Positions 45,810-55,556 of a stretch of 64,000 bases of DNA are shown one piece after another. Source of the stretch: Candidatus Acidulodesulfobacterium acidiphilum (GTDB lineage: Bacteria > SZUA-79 > Acidulodesulfobacterales > Acidulodesulfobacteraceae); NCBI GenBank assembly GCA_008534395.1, contig SHMQ01000007.1, forward strand, positions 1 through 64,000, written 5' to 3'. The position numbers and the translations under genes are program-made. The stretch's first letter is position 1. Every line of letters starts with the position of its first letter. The notes under the pieces were generated by a model that ran no database searches, was not told the origin of the DNA, and worked only from the letters and a program-made list of their open reading frames with translations.

Positions 45810-46421
45810 TTAATCATTTAAATATTTATATAAAATTTTCCCTTTACGCGTATAAATTATTTTTGAAGGCTCGACTTTTAAAATAAAAATACCGCCTATA
45901 TTTTCTCCCGTATGAATATAATGTTTTTTACCGTTTATTGCTACCAAAGCAGTATTGCCGCCCGTAAATATTAAAACCACTGTCCGTTTATTTTTGCCTG
46001 AAAATCCTTTAAATTTCAAATTTTTAACGACGTTGCTTAAATTTCCGCCTTTATTAAAACCGCTATTTGCGTTAATGAGATACGGCGCCGGTTTTGCAAC
46101 GTAGTCCGCGACTACATTTTTTTGTGACTTTGAGTGCAAAATAAAAAGTCTGCTGTAATTTTCGTATTTTTTATTCGGAATACTAAAAATATCTTTAAGC
46201 GGTTTTTTAGATAATTCCGTAGATTCAGCTTTCAGGTCTGTATATTTACCTTTAACGCTTAAATTGAGCTTAGTAATTTTTTTATTTTTACAAGACGTAT
46301 TATGCAAAATATTTATTTTTTTATTATTTCCCGATTTTAGTCTGCTTAACGTCGATAGCACCGTTATAAATATAAAAAATGCAAAAATAATAACCGCAAA
46401 TTTTTTAACTTTAGATTTCAT
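45810..46421 (-). CDS. PilP/MshK-like pilus assembly protein
   Basis: A 203-residue protein with one N-terminal membrane helix (FAVIIFAFFIFITVL), a basic unstructured middle and a C-terminal domain. The C-terminus ALVAINGKKHYIHTGENIGG...VEPSKIIYTRKGKILYKYL matches the small beta-domain of PilP, MshK and GspC-like proteins that bind the secretin in the periplasm. PilP is usually a lipoprotein, but this version is helix-anchored. GAGGGG lies before the ATG. It is the last gene of the pilus locus. Confidence 0.65.
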   Translation of the reverse strand: MKSKVKKFAVIIFAFFIFITVLSTLSRLKSGNNKKINILHNTSCKNKKITKLNLSVKGKYTDLKAESTELSKKPLKDIFSIPNKKYENYSRLFILHSKSQKNVVADYVAKPAPYLINANSGFNKGGNLSNVVKNLKFKGFSGKNKRTVVLIFTGGNTALVAINGKKHYIHTGENIGGIFILKVEPSKIIYTRKGKILYKYLND

Positions 46422-46449: not shown

Positions 46450-46953
46450 TTATTTAAAACCAATAAGTTCGGCGTTTATAATTGCATCTATTTTTCTTCC
46501 GGATTTAATATTAATTTTTTTTATTTCGAATGGAAACGATTTAAGCGTCTTTATTAAAGAAAATAAGGCATCGATGTCCGAAAAATTACTTAATGCCACC
46601 GTAAAGTTAGTTATTTTTAAATAAACATCTTGAACATTTTTCCTATTTTCCGTCTTTTGGATGCTAATTCCGATATTAAATCCGTTTTCTTTTAAATATC
46701 TCGCATAAGATAAAAAAGACACCATATAACTATAAAATTCATGTTTTCCAGCCGTAAATTTAATAGTTTTAATCTTATTATCTTTCTTAATATTAATTTT
46801 TAACTGTCTGATAGTATTTTTTTCGTAAGTATATGATTTATTTAATTTATAAAAATAGCTTATAGAAGGTATTAACCCATAAAACAATATACAAGCCGAG
46901 GTTAAAGATAATAAAATTAATATTATCGACCTTTTGTTCTTAATTTTTTTCAT
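46450..46953 (-). CDS. PilO/MshJ-like pilus assembly protein
   Basis: A 167-residue inner-membrane protein with one N-terminal helix (SIILILLSLTSACILFYGLIPSI), a short coiled-coil stretch and a ferredoxin-like periplasmic domain (FNIGISIQKTENRKNVQDVYLKITNFTVALSNFSDIDALFSLIKTLKSFPFEIKKINI). This is the pattern of PilO and GspM-type proteins. Support is from its place between PilN-like and PilP-like genes as well. Confidence 0.65.
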   Translation of the reverse strand: MKKIKNKRSIILILLSLTSACILFYGLIPSISYFYKLNKSYTYEKNTIRQLKINIKKDNKIKTIKFTAGKHEFYSYMVSFLSYARYLKENGFNIGISIQKTENRKNVQDVYLKITNFTVALSNFSDIDALFSLIKTLKSFPFEIKKINIKSGRKIDAIINAELIGFK

Positions 46954-47002: not shown

Positions 47003-48196
47003 TTATTTTTTTAGTAATCCTAAAAATTTCATTGAAGGTTTTCCAGATTTGTCGAAAAAATATTTAACGCTTAAAGTTTTTTTTCCGTCCAACTTTTTTG
47101 ATAGCGCATTATAATTATGCGAGAATATCCTATAACCGTCGGTACCAAATACGGTTGCATTAAAAATATATCCTGCTCCCGATTTTATAATATTGATTTT
47201 TTTTATTTTGACGCTTTTCGGTAAAATCGCAAAAAATTTTTTTAAATAATTCGCAATATTAACTTTAGGGAAATCCTCGTTAAATAAAATTTTACTTTTA
47301 TCTTTATCTATTTTTAAAGATAAAACGGAAATTTTTTTGTTCATTTCTCTTATTTTTTGCACTTCGTAAAATGTTTTTTTTCGGTAAGATACAACCAGCA
47401 CTTCCATTAAAAATATAGCAAATATTAAAACTGCGATATAAATATTTTTTGCCCTATTTTTTTTATCTTCTATTTTTTTAAATTTTATTTCTATATCTTC
47501 AAAATGAGGGGTATTTTTGTTTATGCTTTTAAAATATTCAAAAAAATCTTTAGCCGTAAAATTTAATATTTCTACATTTCCGAAAAAATTTTTAAAATCG
47601 GCGCAATCGCATTCGGCAATTATCTGCTCTATTTTAATGCCAATATTTTCGGAATCTATTCTGGTTTTCAAAATATTAAGATTATCCATTAACATATCCG
47701 CCTTAAAACTTAAAACCGGCATTATGCTAAAACCGTTTGAAACTAAAATCATTTTATATACGTCGTCGGTTTTTTCTATAAATAGAAAATCTTTTTTAAG
47801 ATTAATGCCGTTAAATTTTTCTTTTAAAAACTCTATCACCAAAAAATCGTATGGAATAACTATATCTATTCCTTTAAATAACGAATAATATTTTTTAATA
47901 TTTAAAGGCAGGGTATGATAAAATCCGCATCCTCCATTTATACCATCCGCAAAAAAATAAGATTCGTTCTTATAAGATTTTCCTACGTAACGGCTTAAAT
48001 AAAATTTTTTACCGTCTTTTAATCTTTTTTCCGGTATAATCGAAAAATTTATATTTTTAGATATTATCGAAACTGCATGTTCTATTTCAAAATCGGCTGC
48101 ATAATCGTCGATACGTTCATGCGAAAAAAATGATTTATCGCCGTCAAAATACTGATATATATCGTATTCTTCAATATAAATAAAATTTTTATACAT
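47003..48196 (-). CDS. PilM/PilN-like (GspL-like) assembly protein
   Basis: A 397-residue protein: a cytoplasmic N-terminal part of about 240 residues, one membrane helix at about 248-268 (IYIAVLIFAIFLMEVLVVSY), a coiled-coil (VQKIREMNKKISVLSLKIDKDKSKIL) and a periplasmic domain (FFAILPKSVKIKKINIIKSGAGYIFNATVFG). The C-terminal half resembles PilN. The N-terminal half sits where PilM would be and may be a degenerate PilM-like domain; no actin-fold motif was recognised. A GspL-like fusion is the simplest reading. Confidence 0.6.
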   Translation of the reverse strand: MYKNFIYIEEYDIYQYFDGDKSFFSHERIDDYAADFEIEHAVSIISKNINFSIIPEKRLKDGKKFYLSRYVGKSYKNESYFFADGINGGCGFYHTLPLNIKKYYSLFKGIDIVIPYDFLVIEFLKEKFNGINLKKDFLFIEKTDDVYKMILVSNGFSIMPVLSFKADMLMDNLNILKTRIDSENIGIKIEQIIAECDCADFKNFFGNVEILNFTAKDFFEYFKSINKNTPHFEDIEIKFKKIEDKKNRAKNIYIAVLIFAIFLMEVLVVSYRKKTFYEVQKIREMNKKISVLSLKIDKDKSKILFNEDFPKVNIANYLKKFFAILPKSVKIKKINIIKSGAGYIFNATVFGTDGYRIFSHNYNALSKKLDGKKTLSVKYFFDKSGKPSMKFLGLLKK

Positions 48197-48210: not shown

Positions 48211-49173
48211 TTAATTTAATTTTATAAGGTCTGGAAGATAATTTGCAGGTATTTTTATCTCATATCCTGCGGGTTCTACTTGAACGTAATTCATTCCGCC
48301 TTCCCAATAAGAATACCTTACGTTCCCGTAAACTTCAGGAAGATATTTACTCTGAAACGCTCCTCCTACCCAGTAATTTTCGGTATAGGTAACGCCGGAA
48401 TTATTTGTATATGCAGAACCTCCGCCGCATCCGGAATAAGGATCGTTGGCATAGCTCAATATAGCGCTATTTCCGTCAATAGCTTCAACTATAAAATATA
48501 ACTTCAATTCGCCGTCTGCCCAGTCTCTTGACCATCCGTCACGATTATAACGACTCATAGTTTGCGTAACATAACAAATTGCGCCTGTAATATAAAAACT
48601 CTTTCCTATGTACTGTTCATAAATGCCGCCGTCTCCATTGCTTAAGGCTATAGGGTCTATATAAATTATTTCGTTTCCGTTAACTAACGAACTTCCGGGA
48701 ATATCGTGCCTTATTTCTTTATAAAAATTATAATAGTCGTTAGGTTCGCCGCTTTGCGAAGGAGTAACGGCAAGAGTATAACTGATTTCCTGAGCGGTAC
48801 CATTATTAACGGCATTATTAACGCTTAAACATATTTTAGTATCGTCTTCCGTTTTTATACTTCCGTATATGCAATTCGAATTTGGATTGCCTCCGACAAA
48901 ATTTATGCCTATGCCTTTAGCTATGTACCCTGCAGATTGAAGAGAACTTATGCTACTGAATTTACTATTATTATTAACATAGGTACTTTCGGCATTTATC
49001 AAAGTATTTGCCAGAACAGATACGTTTTGCGCTCTATTTTCGCATACAATACCCTGAAGCGCAGGTATGCTTAACGCAGTCATTATCGACAAAACTATCA
49101 TTGAAACAATAATTCCTGCAAGCGAAAATCCTTTATTATTATTTTCTAAAATTTTAGCAAAATTAATATTCAT
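48211..49173 (-). CDS. Large type IV minor pilin without Glu5
   Basis: A 320-residue prepilin. The 15-residue leader ends in Gly (NNNKG) and is followed by FSLAGIIVSMIVLSIMTALSIPAL, a standard hydrophobic helix. Residue +5 is Gly rather than the conserved Glu, as in GspK-like tip subunits. The globular part resembles the next pilin-like protein in its first 100 residues (AQNVSVLANTLINAESTYVNN) and then extends by about 150 residues rich in Tyr, Gly and Asn. A good GGAGG precedes the ATG. A tip or adhesin role is inferred. Confidence 0.75.
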   Translation of the reverse strand: MNINFAKILENNNKGFSLAGIIVSMIVLSIMTALSIPALQGIVCENRAQNVSVLANTLINAESTYVNNNSKFSSISSLQSAGYIAKGIGINFVGGNPNSNCIYGSIKTEDDTKICLSVNNAVNNGTAQEISYTLAVTPSQSGEPNDYYNFYKEIRHDIPGSSLVNGNEIIYIDPIALSNGDGGIYEQYIGKSFYITGAICYVTQTMSRYNRDGWSRDWADGELKLYFIVEAIDGNSAILSYANDPYSGCGGGSAYTNNSGVTYTENYWVGGAFQSKYLPEVYGNVRYSYWEGGMNYVQVEPAGYEIKIPANYLPDLIKLN

Positions 49174-49186
49174 AACACCTCCATTT

Positions 49187-49855
49187 TTAAAAAAGACTTA
49201 AGACAGATGCAAAAAAGTTTGTTATTGTCTGCGTTACTTTTGTTAATAAATTGCTCTGCGTCCCTACGGTATTGGTATAATTAATACCTCCGTTGGCGTT
49301 AGGACTTACGTTTACCGATGAAACCGGTGAAGACGCGCCAGTATTAGAGTTAGAGGCAGAAGCAGAATGAAAAGAGGGCGCTGCGTCGTTTAAACTAAAA
49401 GTTACTACGCCTAAGCCGTTAATATCGGAAACCTGCCCCGTCTTACCCGTTATGCCTTTGCTTATTTCTTTAGCGACTATATCTTCATTGGCCAAATTTA
49501 AAGGAATATAAATTTCGATTGATTCGTTTTGTAAATTAATGCATATATTTGTCGTGCTTTTAAAGAGTAATTTTTCTAAACATGAATCTCCTTGAAAATT
49601 ATAAACTTTCATCGGACTTAAATACGCCGGCTTATTGTTTTCCAAACTCGTGATATCCGTAAAAGTTCCCGTGTTTTGAAAATAAGCATGTTCTGCCTTT
49701 ATTAATAAATCTGTAATATTGACGATATTTTGCGCTTCCATATTATATATTTGACCCTTAGGCATACCGGACATTCCGAAAGAAAATTTTGGCAATAAAA
49801 ATAAGTAAAAAACAAACATTATATTTAAAATAATGTAATAGCCGTAACGTTTCAT
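49187..49855 (-). CDS. Pilin-like globular protein on a Sec signal peptide
   Basis: Begins at ATG 49855, with AAAGG 8 nt upstream; a TTG at 49900 would extend it but lacks a site. The 222-residue protein has an ordinary signal peptide (YYIILNIMFVFYLFLLPKFSFG) and no prepilin G-F cleavage motif. Its first 100 mature residues are clearly related to the neighbouring minor pilin: EAQNIVNITDLLIKAEHAYFQN versus RAQNVSVLANTLINAESTYVNN, followed by F-x2-I-x-SL, then N-F-x-G-x2-C and ICI. The tail is Ser/Asn-rich. It looks like a secreted pilin domain without the polymerisation helix. Such proteins were not recognised by the author as a known family. Confidence 0.6.
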   Translation of the reverse strand: MKRYGYYIILNIMFVFYLFLLPKFSFGMSGMPKGQIYNMEAQNIVNITDLLIKAEHAYFQNTGTFTDITSLENNKPAYLSPMKVYNFQGDSCLEKLLFKSTTNICINLQNESIEIYIPLNLANEDIVAKEISKGITGKTGQVSDINGLGVVTFSLNDAAPSFHSASASNSNTGASSPVSSVNVSPNANGGINYTNTVGTQSNLLTKVTQTITNFFASVLSLF

Positions 49856-49934
49856 ATAAATAACCTTTAATAGCTTTTTTAAGGATTTAATTAATTTCAA
49901 TTTAATTTTCGCTGTTTTAACGATTGTTAACTTG

Positions 49935-50588
49935 TTAATTAAATGTAAAGGTCAGGCTTCCCTGAAAATTTGAATTATTTGCCGAAGCTGCATTACCGTT
50001 GAACAGATCCGTCAAGCAATTTTGACCGTTACCTATGTTAAAGACGGGACTGCCCTCGGTATCTACGCCGGATATTGAGTTTTCTAAAGAATTGCATATG
50101 TTTAAAGCCTGGGCATTCGTCATCTGCGGAGCGTTTATGCCGATGACGTAAATATACTGTCCCGGATTTGAATCGGTAGAAATTTGATATGCGGAAACAA
50201 AACCCGCATTAGGCGGTATAACGTTATTGCCGTTAACCGTCCATGAAGAAGGGAGCAGGTTGTCTTCCTGCATAGCATATGGAAGAGAAACGCCGGCAGG
50301 GGGAATTATACTCCCGCCGTTTACCTGCATATAAGAATTTACGGCCGATTCTAATTTAGTAACCGATTGAACCGTTGCAGTAACATTGGAAGAACCTATT
50401 AATCCGTTATAAACCATTAATCCCCCTGCCGAAAGTATTCCGACTACTATCATTGCGACTATAATTTCCATAAGGGTAAAACCGTTCCCGTTTTTATAAA
50501 TTTTTAGTGAGTGAAAATCCAACTTGTCATTAATTTTTTTGCTTTTTTTGCTTTTAATTTTAATTTCTTTCTTTTTTAGCGCAATCAT
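49935..50588 (-). CDS. Long-leader type IV pilin (PilS/TcpA-like)
   Basis: A 217-residue prepilin. The 36-residue leader (MIALKKKEIK... ending NGNG) precedes FTLMEIIVAMIVVGILSAGG with Glu at +5, so it is assembly competent. The long leader is real because GGAGG lies before this ATG and no later Met exists. The mature domain (NSYMQVNGGSIIPPAG, YVIGINAPQMTNAQALNICNSLENSIS, CLTDLF) has the pattern of PilS/TcpA-type, type IVb pilins with a C-terminal disulfide. It is probably the major subunit. Confidence 0.85.
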   Translation of the reverse strand: MIALKKKEIKIKSKKSKKINDKLDFHSLKIYKNGNGFTLMEIIVAMIVVGILSAGGLMVYNGLIGSSNVTATVQSVTKLESAVNSYMQVNGGSIIPPAGVSLPYAMQEDNLLPSSWTVNGNNVIPPNAGFVSAYQISTDSNPGQYIYVIGINAPQMTNAQALNICNSLENSISGVDTEGSPVFNIGNGQNCLTDLFNGNAASANNSNFQGSLTFTFN

Positions 50589-50647: not shown

Positions 50648-51925
50648 TTAGTAATTAGCCGACAAACCCACCATTCCCTGAATAAGAGGTAAAAATAAAG
50701 AAAAAAACATTAATAGCAAAAAAAGTACTACGCCTATCATTGCAAGCAAAAACAATCCTTTAGTAAATATTTTCATATATCTGTCCGCTTTTTCTTTAAA
50801 TTCCTTAGAAAGATTCAAAACCGTTTCGGATAAAAACCCTCCTATTTCGCCGTACCTTATAGACTCTATGGCATCCTCCGGCAAAAAATCGGCTTTATGC
50901 AAAGAATCAAACAACGTATTGCCTTTAATTAAATCTTGATAAACTGATTTAAATTTATTTCTAAAATATACTTTAGAACTGTTTTTTCCAAAATAATCGA
51001 ATACTGCGTTAACCGTCACGCCCGAAGATATCATTAAAGAAAATTGATAAAAAATCCAGTTTAAATAAGAGTAATTTAAAATATTTTTTAACTGAGGTAT
51101 GTTTTGCAAAAAGGAAAACGCTTTAGTTTTTATTCCGGATAAATCCGACAAAAAAGCGGCGAAAATAAGAACGGCGAAAAATATTATATAGATAAAAATA
51201 TTTTTTAACCGCCCGAACAATTTTAACGTATAAACCGTAGACAAGGGAATATTCGGAAACTGCTTAAAGAATAACGAAAAAGTCGGAACGACGTAATAAA
51301 GAAAAACCGAAAAAGCTATAAACAGCAGTAAAAATAAAAATAAAGGATAAGCTAAGGTTCCTATAATATTTTTTTTATAAATATTTTTAGTTTCGAAATA
51401 TTCGGATATTTTTAAAAAAGATTCCGAATAATCGCCGGTAGATTCCGCTAAATCTATTAAGGAAAGTGCTATTTCTTCAAAATTATTCCTCGCAAACGCT
51501 TCTTTAACGCTTTCCCCTTTATCCAACAAATAAATGCAGTTTTTTATCAATTTTTTACGATTTTTTATCTTTGAAAGCTTATGGCTGTAATATAGGCGCT
51601 TTAATAAATATAGCAAATCATATTTTTTTGAAGATTCAGGCGTTGGTATATCTTTGTCCATATAACTAAAAGATTTGCCGACCGAACCGGTAGATTTGAC
51701 GAGATGATGCAGTTCATTAAAAAACACCGCAAGCTCGGCGTCTTTCATTCCTCCGTTGCCGGTAGGGTTTATTGCATCTAAAAAAATATTGGGTAAAACA
51801 AATGACGGCATATAGCCTTCTTCTAAAATAAGCGTTTCCGCATCCGATAAATTTTGCGCCTTAATATTTCTTATCAGACTTTTACCTTCAGGGGTATAAA
51901 ATTTGACTAAATAATTTTTTAACAT
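50648..51925 (-). CDS. PilC/GspF inner-membrane platform protein
   Basis: A 425-residue polytopic protein with the tandem T2SSF domain structure. First domain is around 150-235 (SVKEAFARNNFEEIALSLIDLAESTGDYSESFLKISEYFE) and second is around 280-420 (NWIFYQFSLMISSGVTVNAVFDYF...FLPEDAIESIRYGEIGGFLSETVLNLSKEF). It coordinates the assembly ATPase with pilin polymerisation. It starts 4 bp after the ATPase stop. Confidence 0.92.
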   Translation of the reverse strand: MLKNYLVKFYTPEGKSLIRNIKAQNLSDAETLILEEGYMPSFVLPNIFLDAINPTGNGGMKDAELAVFFNELHHLVKSTGSVGKSFSYMDKDIPTPESSKKYDLLYLLKRLYYSHKLSKIKNRKKLIKNCIYLLDKGESVKEAFARNNFEEIALSLIDLAESTGDYSESFLKISEYFETKNIYKKNIIGTLAYPLFLFLLLFIAFSVFLYYVVPTFSLFFKQFPNIPLSTVYTLKLFGRLKNIFIYIIFFAVLIFAAFLSDLSGIKTKAFSFLQNIPQLKNILNYSYLNWIFYQFSLMISSGVTVNAVFDYFGKNSSKVYFRNKFKSVYQDLIKGNTLFDSLHKADFLPEDAIESIRYGEIGGFLSETVLNLSKEFKEKADRYMKIFTKGLFLLAMIGVVLFLLLMFFSLFLPLIQGMVGLSANY

Positions 51926-51929
51926 AAAT

Positions 51930-53651
51930 CTACCTCGACAAACTAAAATAAGCTTGGGGATCTATATCGCCTGCAAGCAATTTTTCAAATGCCTGCGTTT
52001 TTAAAGATTTAAATCCCGATAAATTTATTAAAACGGATTCTAAGTAAGACTGATTAAACAATAAATTTAAGTCTTTATATATTTCCTCTTTTGCAGATTC
52101 ATTAAACTCGGCAATTTCAATAAGCGGCTTTCTTTTATCGTATCCCGTTCCGCCGCAACTGTCGCAGTTTTTTTCTCCTCTCACAAAAACGGCATCGAGA
52201 AATTTTACCTCTTTAAAATCTGAAGTCGTATCGATAAATCTTGCTATGTTATTTTTACTTTTTATATTCATTTCATAACCTGTTTCTGGGGTAAATCGTA
52301 AGTCCTGCATCAGGGCTTTTTTGTAAATAGAAGGTAACTCTTCGAAATATATCTTTTTTTTGCATTCTGGACATAAAGGATTATACAGCCTCTGCGCCGT
52401 TACGAATCTTAATACCGAAAATAACTGAACGACATCTATATTTAAAGATTTAAATCTTCCGAATATCGACAGAGACGAATTAGCGTGAAGCGTAGTCATG
52501 ACGAGATGACCCGTTTCTGCAGCCATCAGCGCATGTTTTGCGGTAATTTCGTCCCTTATTTCGCCTATCATCATTATATCCGGCTCGCTTCTCAACATAA
52601 CCCTGACGGCTTCAGGATATCCAAAATCTTCAGATATATTCATTTGCGTTATATTCGATTCGCGTAATTCTATTTCTACCGGATCTTCTATAGTCAAAAT
52701 CGTACCTTTTTTCTGGGACAGCAGTTTAAGCATTGCATAAAATGTAGTAGTTTTTCCGGAACCGGTCGGTCCGGTAGCTATAATAAGTCCGTTTGGGTGT
52801 ATATAAGATTTTTTTAGCAATTCGGCATTTTCTTCCGTAAAACCTATCGATTCAAAATCGAATACTTTATTCAAACCATGAATTCTAAGGACTGCTTCAA
52901 AAAGCATGGTTTCTTTGTCGAGCTTCGATGAAATGGGTAAAAATGCAACTCTAATGCTAACTTTTAACCCTTTATAAAAATTTGAAACAAAAATAAATTT
53001 TGCGTCTAATCCCTCGCCTTTTTTTAAAGTAATTCTGCAATTTGCGGCTATAATATTTATTATCCTCTGTCCCGACTCCAAGCTTAGAACTCTTATGTTT
53101 TCCTGATAAATTTCTCCGTCCATAATAATCATGTAAAAATTTTCCGTTCTTTTTATCCTTAAATTAGGTGATCCTTTTAATAACGCTATTTCAATTGCCT
53201 CGTTTAAAATTTCTTTTTCGGAGAACTCTTTATTGCTAATAAATATCTTACTGAGCGCTTCGTAAATTTTTCTTTTCGTAGAAATAGCTATTTTATAAGA
53301 TTTAAGACGTTCGTCAAAAGCTATCTTTCCCGACAAAGATGATGTAATTTCATTGCAAACTATATAGCTGATCCCGTCTTTTTTTGCTATTACGGCTGGA
53401 ATATCATATAGCAGGGCAAAGCCGAAATATTCATTTTCCTTTTTATCTATATAAAACGAATTTAAATCGCCGAAAAATTCTCTTCCTGAACTGTCTGCCG
53501 CATAAAGCGCTATATCGGCATCTGTAACATAGCCACAATCCGTTAATATTTCACCCAGTCTTTTTTTGCCGATAGACTGCATGAATAGTGCATCTTTAAG
53601 CTGTTCTTCAGTAAACTTTCTTTTCGATATAAAATATTCGCCGATTTTCAT
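51930..53651 (-). CDS. PilB/MshE-like pilus assembly ATPase
   Basis: Hexameric ATPase powering pilin insertion. An N-terminal MshEN-like domain (KFTEEQLKDALFMQSIGKKRLGEILTDCGYVTDADI) may bind c-di-GMP, though its motif was not verified. The core has Walker A GPTGSGKTTTFYAML near residue 292, the Asp box EDPVEIEL, Walker B GEIRD and the His box TTLHAN. Two Cys pairs, CPEC near 446 and CDSCGG near 508, form the usual zinc site but are about 60 residues apart, an unusually long insertion. Start ATG 53651 is chosen over TTG 53666. This gives 573 residues. Confidence 0.92.
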   Translation of the reverse strand: MKIGEYFISKRKFTEEQLKDALFMQSIGKKRLGEILTDCGYVTDADIALYAADSSGREFFGDLNSFYIDKKENEYFGFALLYDIPAVIAKKDGISYIVCNEITSSLSGKIAFDERLKSYKIAISTKRKIYEALSKIFISNKEFSEKEILNEAIEIALLKGSPNLRIKRTENFYMIIMDGEIYQENIRVLSLESGQRIINIIAANCRITLKKGEGLDAKFIFVSNFYKGLKVSIRVAFLPISSKLDKETMLFEAVLRIHGLNKVFDFESIGFTEENAELLKKSYIHPNGLIIATGPTGSGKTTTFYAMLKLLSQKKGTILTIEDPVEIELRESNITQMNISEDFGYPEAVRVMLRSEPDIMMIGEIRDEITAKHALMAAETGHLVMTTLHANSSLSIFGRFKSLNIDVVQLFSVLRFVTAQRLYNPLCPECKKKIYFEELPSIYKKALMQDLRFTPETGYEMNIKSKNNIARFIDTTSDFKEVKFLDAVFVRGEKNCDSCGGTGYDKRKPLIEIAEFNESAKEEIYKDLNLLFNQSYLESVLINLSGFKSLKTQAFEKLLAGDIDPQAYFSLSR

Positions 53652-53822
53652 ATGACTAAAAAACAAATAAATTTATTATTGATTTATTTTGATATCTTTA
53701 TTGTTTGTTTATAAATCTTTATGCTCTATATATACGTATATACATAAACATCTATAATAAACACGAATGAAAATTTTTATTTTATACTCATTTTCTGCTG
53801 CAAATTTTTTGTAAATTCAGCT

Positions 53823-55556
53823 TTATCTGATTATTTTCGGCGTAAGCATTATAAGCAGGTCTTCTTTTTCATCGGTATCGTTTACAGACTTGAAAAAATT
53901 GCCAAACAGAGGTATTTTAGAAAATATAGGAATTCCGTACGTATTTTTAACTTTATCAGTCGTAAGTATTCCTCCTACAAGTATCGTCGAACCCGACTTT
54001 ACGTTTACGGTGTCGGAAAAGCTTTTCGATTCTATTACAGGATTACTGAAACTTTCCTCCCCGATTGCAAAAGACTGATAGCCTGTAATAGAATTATCTA
54101 TTAGGCTTAACGTAACGGAAACGGAATTATTTTTAAAATTTATATGAGGAGTAAAAGATATCGAAAGCCCCGTTTGAACCTGAGATATAACAGGATAAGT
54201 TTCCGTCTGCGACAAACTTAGCGACATCGTCTGAATACTCGAAACATAAGGGGTTATAGTGCCGGAAGATATAAGCCTCGTCTGCCCATCCATTAAAACA
54301 AGCCTTGGCTGAGAGATAACGTCGACTGCCCCCTGAGTCCTCAAAGCGTTTAAAATTGCGCTGTTGCTTCCAGAACCCTTAAAACCTATATACGGCGCAT
54401 TAGAAATATTGTTTGAAGACGCAAGCTGAGCCGAAACCGACAATGAATCCGCCCCAAAAACATTAGACTTAAAAGCCTGATTAAATAATAAATTCCAGTT
54501 TATTCCCGCCTGAAATCCTTTATTTAAATTTACGTCTATTACCTCAACTTTTAAAAACACCTGTTTTGAAAGAAACTTATTTATTCTTTTTATATAAGCC
54601 GCAACTTCATTGACATTTGAAACTCTGTCTTTTACCCATATCAATCCGTCTTTCGGATTAATAAAATATTTTCCGTTTTTAGTTAACATTTCTTTTATAT
54701 TTCTGGAAATTATAGAATATAGACTGTCCGATTCCGACAATGTAAGCGAAAGCGAACCGGAAGGATTGCCCGAATAACCGCCGCCGTTTCCATAATTACC
54801 GTTTACGCCGGAGTTTATTAAACCGGAAGACAAAGAATCAGAAGAACCTGAACCGGATGATTCGGTATTTCCTCCTGTAATACCCGTCCCGCCTCCTTCC
54901 GGTATTTCTTGAGTATTTCCGTTATTAATGCTAGAATTAACGCCTCCTCCTTCTATACCGCTCATGCCGACTGTCGAAGAAAAAGTTGATAATAGATCCG
55001 ATACCGGAATATGGAAGGTTTTTTCTTCTACGGCATAAACATAAAGCATTTTATTTTTATAACTGTAAGCAAAACCGTTAGAAACCAAAAGTCCGTTTAA
55101 AACTTTATACAACGGAATATCTTTATAATATGCTTCGTTCTTCAATTTATCAGGAAAACCCCTGTAAATTACAAAAGGAACGCCCGTTTCATGAGATAAA
55201 GTCATTAATGCGGATTTTACGCTTCCGTTTCCGGAAAGTGAAATTCTTTGCCTCAAAAAATAAGGCATATTCATATTCATTTTAGTTAAACTTTTTTTGC
55301 AGATTGCTCCGTTAATTTCTTCACAACCTCTATTTTTACGAACATTTACAGATAGACGATCCTCCTTTTTCCCATCGAAATTAATATGTACTATTCCGGC
55401 TTTTTTAATTTTTATCCCGTATTTCTTAAGTAATTCGTTAAAACTGTTTTGATTCTTATTATAAGCTGCGCATACTTTAACCGAAAAAATCATACCGATA
55501 CTTGCAACTGCAGTAATAAATATAAACGCCGATAATTTTTTGTTTTTAATTTTCAT
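53823..55556 (-). CDS. Outer-membrane secretin, MshL/PilQ-like
   Basis: A 577-residue exported channel subunit. A signal peptide (FIFITAVASIGMIFSVKVCAA) is followed by an N0/STN-like domain (VPFVIYRGFPDKLKNEAYYKDIPLYKVLNGLLVSNGFAY). A Gly/Ser/Asn-rich linker occupies about 195-270. The secretin domain ends with VDVISQPRLVLMDGQTRLISSGT and SILVGGILTTDKVKNTYGIPIFSKIPLFGNFFKS and the terminal KEDLLIMLTPKII. It is the first gene of the pilus locus and lies behind the six-repeat promoter. Confidence 0.93.
   Translation of the reverse strand: MKIKNKKLSAFIFITAVASIGMIFSVKVCAAYNKNQNSFNELLKKYGIKIKKAGIVHINFDGKKEDRLSVNVRKNRGCEEINGAICKKSLTKMNMNMPYFLRQRISLSGNGSVKSALMTLSHETGVPFVIYRGFPDKLKNEAYYKDIPLYKVLNGLLVSNGFAYSYKNKMLYVYAVEEKTFHIPVSDLLSTFSSTVGMSGIEGGGVNSSINNGNTQEIPEGGGTGITGGNTESSGSGSSDSLSSGLINSGVNGNYGNGGGYSGNPSGSLSLTLSESDSLYSIISRNIKEMLTKNGKYFINPKDGLIWVKDRVSNVNEVAAYIKRINKFLSKQVFLKVEVIDVNLNKGFQAGINWNLLFNQAFKSNVFGADSLSVSAQLASSNNISNAPYIGFKGSGSNSAILNALRTQGAVDVISQPRLVLMDGQTRLISSGTITPYVSSIQTMSLSLSQTETYPVISQVQTGLSISFTPHINFKNNSVSVTLSLIDNSITGYQSFAIGEESFSNPVIESKSFSDTVNVKSGSTILVGGILTTDKVKNTYGIPIFSKIPLFGNFFKSVNDTDEKEDLLIMLTPKIIR

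What the first reader, a model, noticed from the sequence alone, without database searches (positions are those of the whole stretch)
49187..49855. Pilin domain carried on a plain signal peptide
This protein aligns with the globular region of the adjacent minor pilin (AQN-x9-LI-x-AE-x2-Y, then I-x-SL, F-x-G-x2-C and ICI) but lacks the prepilin motif and hydrophobic assembly helix, having a Sec signal instead. It could cap, chaperone or block pilus growth, or act as a free secreted ligand.
Basis: partly seen in the sequence, partly recalled or inferred. Interest (0 to 1): 0.75.

Follow-up and report, generated by a model that had tools for sequence, protein, structure and literature searches.

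The report
Soluble copy of a pilus-tip protein
Next to the gene for a pilus-tip protein sits a relative of it that has lost the greasy helix used to build pili and carries an ordinary export signal instead; the two genes are always kept or lost together, so the loose copy probably works with the pilus tip.

Summary
The 222-aa protein at 49187-49855 (-), "Q", is a diverged relative of the pilin domain of the adjacent minor pilin (profile-profile E 1.1e-6; score 42.3 against at most 23.5 in 200 shuffles). It has no prepilin motif. This is not a sequencing error: 14 orthologues in one phylum share the architecture, and in seven a stop lies 2-6 codons before the start. The likely signal-peptidase I site falls where Pro22 separates alpha1-N from alpha1-C in the minor pilin, so cleavage would leave a natural alpha1-N-less pilin. 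The mature part adds a variable linker, a conserved SPxxxGGxxY motif and an amphipathic C-terminal helix. Q always lies between major and minor pilin of a conserved pilus operon. Two nested lineages keep the operon but lack exactly Q and the minor pilin. Best reading: a Sec-exported, non-polymerising paralogue of the tip minor pilin that works with it at the pilus tip, comparable in logic to TcpF/CofJ. Holdase, cap or assembly brake remain open. A Geobacter-type split pilin is disfavoured (no short prepilin partner found). AlphaFold models were too weak to confirm the fold. New variant of a known kind.

The parts
49187..49855 (-). Q: soluble pilin-head protein, 222 aa
   Evidence: 15 orthologues, dN/dS about 0.17-0.32 overall
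49864..49868 (-). AAAGG ribosome-binding-like site for Q
   Evidence: sequence
49775..49855 (-). predicted Sec signal peptide (residues 1-27), likely SPase I site S-F-G|M; aligns with alpha1-N of the minor pilin
   Evidence: alignment; no SignalP available
49391..49756 (-). pilin domain (residues 34-155): alpha1-C, alpha-beta loop, beta region with C92/C105, EIS-x-GITG helix
   Evidence: hhalign; secondary structure of model; dN/dS 0.10-0.21
49310..49390 (-). variable Ser/Asn/Pro-rich linker (residues 156-182)
   Evidence: mean pairwise identity 0.47
49268..49309 (-). conserved SPNANGGINY motif (residues 183-196; S184, P185, G189, G190, Y193 invariant)
49190..49261 (-). amphipathic C-terminal helix ending in Phe (residues 199-222)
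   Evidence: hydrophobic moment 0.37-0.62 in 15 of 15 orthologues; helix 202-221 in the model (low confidence)
48211..49173 (-). partner: tip-type minor pilin, GFSL prepilin motif, Gly instead of Glu at +5, Pro at +22, extra C-terminal beta domain
49935..50588 (-). major pilin, GFTLME motif, about 35-residue leader
50648..51925 (-). platform protein (GspF/PilC-like)
51930..53666 (-). extension ATPase (GspE/PilB-like) with MshE-like N-domain
53823..55556 (-). secretin, best match MshL (below the curated cut-off)
47003..48196 (-). PilM/N-position inner-membrane protein (no family hit)
   Evidence: named by position in operon only
46450..46953 (-). PilO-position protein (no significant family hit)
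   Evidence: named by position in operon only
45810..46421 (-). PilP-position protein (no family hit)
   Evidence: named by position in operon only

Best explanation
Q is a paralogue of the tip minor pilin that no longer polymerises. Its former alpha1-N helix has become a cleavable Sec signal peptide, so signal peptidase I cuts at the old alpha1-N/alpha1-C boundary and releases a soluble pilin head with a flexible tail and an amphipathic C-terminal helix into the periplasm. There it most likely binds the adjacent-encoded minor pilin, which lacks Glu5 and so should sit at the pilus tip, and is carried out with the tip as a ligand or co-subunit, in the manner of TcpF/CofJ. Shown here: homology, missing prepilin features, conserved architecture, operon position, joint retention and joint loss with the minor pilin. 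Inferred: cleavage, binding, tip location, export.
For: Homology to the minor pilin's pilin domain, with a shared cysteine pair. 15 of 15 Q orthologues lie between major and minor pilin, and all nine genes are syntenic wherever the contig is long enough. G001 and G003 keep the operon but lack exactly Q and the minor pilin; they are nested in the pair-bearing clade, neither gene is found elsewhere in those genomes, and G001 keeps the untranslated leader seen upstream of Q in G009/G011. The signal region varies in length (Met to AQN 36-43) and has dN/dS up to 1.8 in single pairs, while the minor pilin's alpha1-N has no indel in 15 sequences and Q's pilin domain has dN/dS 0.10-0.21: what a cleaved signal peptide predicts and a packed assembly helix does not. 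The minor pilin has invariant Gly at +5; a TcpB Glu5 mutant still initiates pili but fails at retraction-dependent functions (PMC5207764). TcpF and CofJ are the precedent for exported proteins hooked on a tip minor pilin (PMC9565799).
Against: No binding or localisation data. Joint loss of adjacent genes can be one deletion each time, and only two independent losses were seen. AlphaFold confidence was low and Foldseek found no pilin. Q does not carry any of the published TcpF/CofJ N-terminal secretion motifs. Cleavage was judged by eye only. The relatives are draft, probably metagenome-derived, assemblies.
Confidence: 0.5

Rival explanations
1. Q stays in the periplasm and works as a dedicated holdase, cap or brake for the minor pilin. 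By offering the same pilin head without a polymerising helix it keeps the minor pilin soluble or blocks its interface until assembly starts.
For: Same pairing and joint-loss data. A pilin head without alpha1-N is the natural form of a non-extending competitor. The amphipathic C-terminal helix could shield a hydrophobic surface or sit on the membrane.
Against: The conserved SPxxxGGxxY motif in an otherwise variable tail suggests a specific docking peptide rather than a generic holdase. No direct test was possible.
Confidence: 0.27
2. Q is the head half of a split pilin, as with Geobacter PilA-C, and joins a short alpha1-N peptide to form a complete subunit.
For: Geobacter major pilins split stick and head into two proteins (PMC10191384, PMC5174107).
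Against: Q keeps its own alpha1-C. In the window's genome all seven N_methyl matches sit in open frames of 176-383 aa, so no short prepilin partner was found there at that threshold. There is no room for one beside Q.
Confidence: 0.07
3. Q is a leaderless pilin that keeps its hydrophobic segment and is inserted in the filament or membrane without processing.
For: The hydrophobic segment aligns roughly in register with alpha1-N.
Against: Length changes in several lineages and a fast-evolving segment; a [K/R]-x-[S/C]-x-[G/A] cleavage-like site at the segment's end in most orthologues; short hydrophobic cores.
Confidence: 0.09
4. Ordinary redundant or decaying minor pilin copy without a specific role.
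For: The sequence is diverged and hits no family.
Against: Purifying selection (dN/dS 0.17-0.32) and 37 invariant columns in 15 orthologues.
Confidence: 0.03

Closest known systems
TcpF / CofJ, secreted proteins of type IVb pili carried by the tip minor pilins TcpB / CofB
   Same: Exported by a signal peptide, same operon as the tip minor pilin, no prepilin helix; a small minor pilin set.
   Different: TcpF and CofJ bind through a flexible N-terminal peptide (FxxxYxSxS, SxGGAFT or YGF); Q's mature N-terminus runs almost straight into alpha1-C and its flexible part is C-terminal. TcpF and CofJ are listed as non-pilin effectors (PMC10191384), whereas Q is a relative of the minor pilin.
Geobacter PilA-C (GSU1497), the split-off head of the major pilin
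   Same: Pilin head encoded without the assembly helix, next to a pilin gene.
   Different: PilA-C pairs with a short stick-only pilin and concerns the major pilin; Q keeps alpha1-C, is a paralogue of a minor pilin, and no short pilin partner was found.
T2SS/T4P tip minor pilins (GspK; TcpB; R64 PilV-like)
   Same: Pilin domain; the partner minor pilin is tip-like, with no Glu5.
   Different: All of these keep the prepilin leader and alpha1-N; Q has neither.
PilY1/PilC1 tip proteins
   Same: Non-polymerising protein thought to sit on a minor pilin complex at the tip.
   Different: Large modular adhesins, unrelated in sequence and much bigger (from general knowledge and PMC10191384; not tested beyond the family scans).

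Membership tests
Type IV pilins | Prepilin leader and peptidase motif (G|F-x3-E) | tested here: not met
   no N_methyl or IV_pilin hit, no convincing motif in 15 orthologues
Type IV pilins | Hydrophobic assembly helix alpha1-N kept in the mature protein | tested here: inconclusive
   Hydrophobic run present but variable in length and fast-evolving; cleavage not measured
Type IV pilins | alpha1-C plus alpha-beta loop and head with cysteine pair | tested here: met
   By sequence homology to the minor pilin head
Type IV pilins | Pilin fold by structure comparison | tested here: inconclusive
   Model pLDDT 54, no Foldseek hit at E<=0.001
TcpF/CofJ-type pilus-secreted effector | Sec signal peptide and gene in the operon of the tip minor pilin | tested here: met
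   signal judged by eye
TcpF/CofJ-type pilus-secreted effector | N-terminal type IVb secretion signal with a critical aromatic | tested here: not met
   Motifs of PMC9565799 absent at the mature N-terminus
TcpF/CofJ-type pilus-secreted effector | Binding to the minor pilin and pilus-dependent export | not testable with these tools
   Needs protein
Split pilin head (Geobacter PilA-C) | Companion short alpha1-N pilin | tested here: not met
   no N_methyl match in an open frame under 176 aa in the window's genome
Split pilin head (Geobacter PilA-C) | Head without its own assembly helix, beside a pilin gene | tested here: met

The most novel reading that the evidence does not exclude
A pilin was turned into a soluble partner by moving its processing from prepilin peptidase to signal peptidase I exactly at the alpha1-N/alpha1-C boundary, giving a natural non-polymerising pilin that controls or crowns the pilus tip through head-to-head contact with its minor pilin paralogue, a class of pilus component not described in the papers consulted.
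Probability: 0.35. Interest if true: 0.72.

Novelty: new variant of a known kind. Interest (0 to 1): 0.55.

Why it matters
Structural biologists cut alpha1-N off pilins to make them soluble; here a bacterial lineage seems to have done this itself and kept the product under selection beside its tip pilin. It offers a naturally paired system for asking what sits on the very tip of a pilus, and whether pilin heads can dock without the polymerising helix. It also shows a route by which a filament subunit can become a secreted cargo or regulator.

Tried and rejected
Sequencing error or hidden prepilin start: rejected, as 14 orthologues agree and stops lie just upstream. TTG start at 49900: rejected, because ATG 49855 has the ribosome-binding-like site and is the start used in orthologues. 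Lipoprotein: rejected by inspection, as no lipobox precedes the cysteines. AlphaFold for Q and the minor pilin: mean pLDDT 54 and 46, so the Foldseek searches give no information. PDB profile search with Q: no hit. Pfam and NCBIfam: no family for Q. Homology to the major pilin: not supported (E 0.2). The genome-contig scan returned only three close relatives already seen as G005, G014 and G012. A resemblance of Q's SPxxxGGxxY to the SxGGAFT secretion motif of CofJ relatives was noted but not counted as evidence.

Full report
Observation. Q (49187-49855, minus strand) is a 222-aa ORF with its ATG at 49855 and AAAGG eight bases upstream. It shares AQN-x7-LI-x-AE-x2-Y (not x9), F-x2-I-x-SL and an IC[I/L] cysteine with the neighbouring minor pilin at 48211-49173. 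Pairwise BLASTP gives E=0.001. Profile against profile gives E=1.5e-6 over Q 7-138 and minor pilin 17-161. With the signal region removed it gives E=1.1e-6 and score 42.3, against a maximum of 23.5 in 200 column-shuffled controls. A whole-genome search with the Q profile in all 30 held genomes of the phylum found only Q orthologues and pilins at E<=0.001. So the resemblance is real homology. It is not detectable to the major pilin.

Not an artefact. Orthologues exist in 14 further genomes of the same family, at 33-80% identity. None has a convincing prepilin motif. In seven of them a stop lies within six codons of the start Met, which leaves no room for a leader. dN/dS over close pairs is 0.17-0.32 for the whole protein and 0.10-0.21 for the pilin domain. 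Thirty-seven columns are invariant.

Anatomy. Residues 1-27 form a short basic start, a hydrophobic run and [K/R]-x-[S/C]-x-[G/A] followed by M or L, which fits signal peptidase I. Two orthologues have Cys or a shifted site there. No signal-peptide predictor was available, so this rests on inspection. Counting back from the shared AQN, in the orthologues without the three-residue insertion after the site, this site falls at the +22 proline of the minor pilin, the usual boundary between alpha1-N and alpha1-C (with general knowledge of pilin structure). The minor pilin's alpha1-N has no indel in 15 sequences, while Q's segment from Met to AQN ranges from 36 to 43 residues (one orthologue counted from an internal position). 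The signal region also evolves faster. The simplest reading is that Q's alpha1-N became a signal peptide and is removed. The pilin domain follows (about residues 34-155, C92 and C105 invariant), then a variable linker, a conserved SPNANGGINY motif, and a C-terminal amphipathic helix that ends in Phe in every orthologue.

Context. The operon runs secretin, ATPase, platform protein, major pilin, Q, minor pilin, then three proteins in the positions of PilM/N, PilO and PilP. The last three are named by position only, since they hit no family. The secretin is closest to MshL and the ATPase carries an MshE-like N-domain, both below curated cut-offs. The minor pilin has GFSL at its cleavage site but an invariant Gly at +5 instead of Glu. 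In V. cholerae, a TcpB Glu5 mutant still makes pili but is impaired in retraction and TcpF secretion (PMC5207764). By that logic this minor pilin should be a tip subunit. This is inference.

Co-occurrence. All 15 genomes with Q have the minor pilin next door, and all nine genes are in the same order wherever the contig reaches. The PilM/N-position protein is also present in G001, G003 and G002. In G001 and G003 the major pilin is followed directly by the PilM/N-position gene: exactly Q and the minor pilin are missing, and profile and protein searches find neither orthologue elsewhere in those genomes. A tree of the other operon proteins nests G001 and G003 separately among pair-bearing genomes with 96-100% support, which implies two independent joint losses. 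The G001 junction still carries the untranslated leader seen before Q in G009 and G011. G002 holds a decayed operon fragment without either gene. Caveat: adjacent genes can go in one deletion, and these are draft assemblies.

Mechanism. The data support Q acting through the minor pilin. I favour a Sec-exported partner that docks on the tip minor pilin and leaves the cell with it, as TcpF and CofJ do on TcpB and CofB (PMC9565799). Against simple membership of that group: Q lacks their N-terminal motifs, and its flexible segment is C-terminal. A periplasmic holdase, cap or brake is the main rival. A Geobacter-like split pilin is disfavoured because Q keeps alpha1-C and the window's genome has no short prepilin at the N_methyl threshold. 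An uncleaved, leaderless pilin is possible but does not explain the indels.

What failed. AlphaFold models of Q and of the minor pilin had mean pLDDT 54 and 46, and Foldseek returned nothing meaningful. Secondary structure order in both models is alike (long helix, short helix, beta strands, helix, beta), which agrees with the homology but is no independent proof.

Novelty. Known precedents are split pilin heads and non-pilin tip ligands. A minor pilin paralogue made soluble by a switch from prepilin to signal peptidase I processing was not found in the papers consulted, but the search was limited to an open-access library. The three named database relatives are metagenome bins titled only 'bacterium'; the identity of the phylum was not established here.

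Noticed in passing
L048 421-1872, L049 5701-7433, L050 6346-8183, L067 9002-10515: Relatives carry a second pilus system whose tip minor pilin has a constant pilin stalk and different C-terminal tips. In L050 a second tip with the same SPPVASANYANSAG start lies on the opposite strand beside it, which suggests exchangeable tips as in the R64 shufflon; no clear inversion repeats were found.
   Followed up: partly
L048 1306-1872, L049 5701-6267: In that second system the slot before the tip minor pilin is held by a normal minor prepilin with FTLIE, not by a Q-like protein.
   Followed up: partly
L066 598-3472: In G002 the same pilus operon appears as a decayed remnant with frameshifts and a missing pilin region, while neighbouring genes are intact.
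   Followed up: partly
window 51930-53666: The extension ATPase carries an N-terminal segment matching the MshE-type cyclic di-GMP-binding domain just below the cut-off (35.9 against 38 bits), so this pilus may be controlled by cyclic di-GMP.
   Followed up: no
window 48211-49173, alignment A2: The minor pilin has invariant Gly at +5 in place of the usual Glu in all 15 orthologues.
   Followed up: partly
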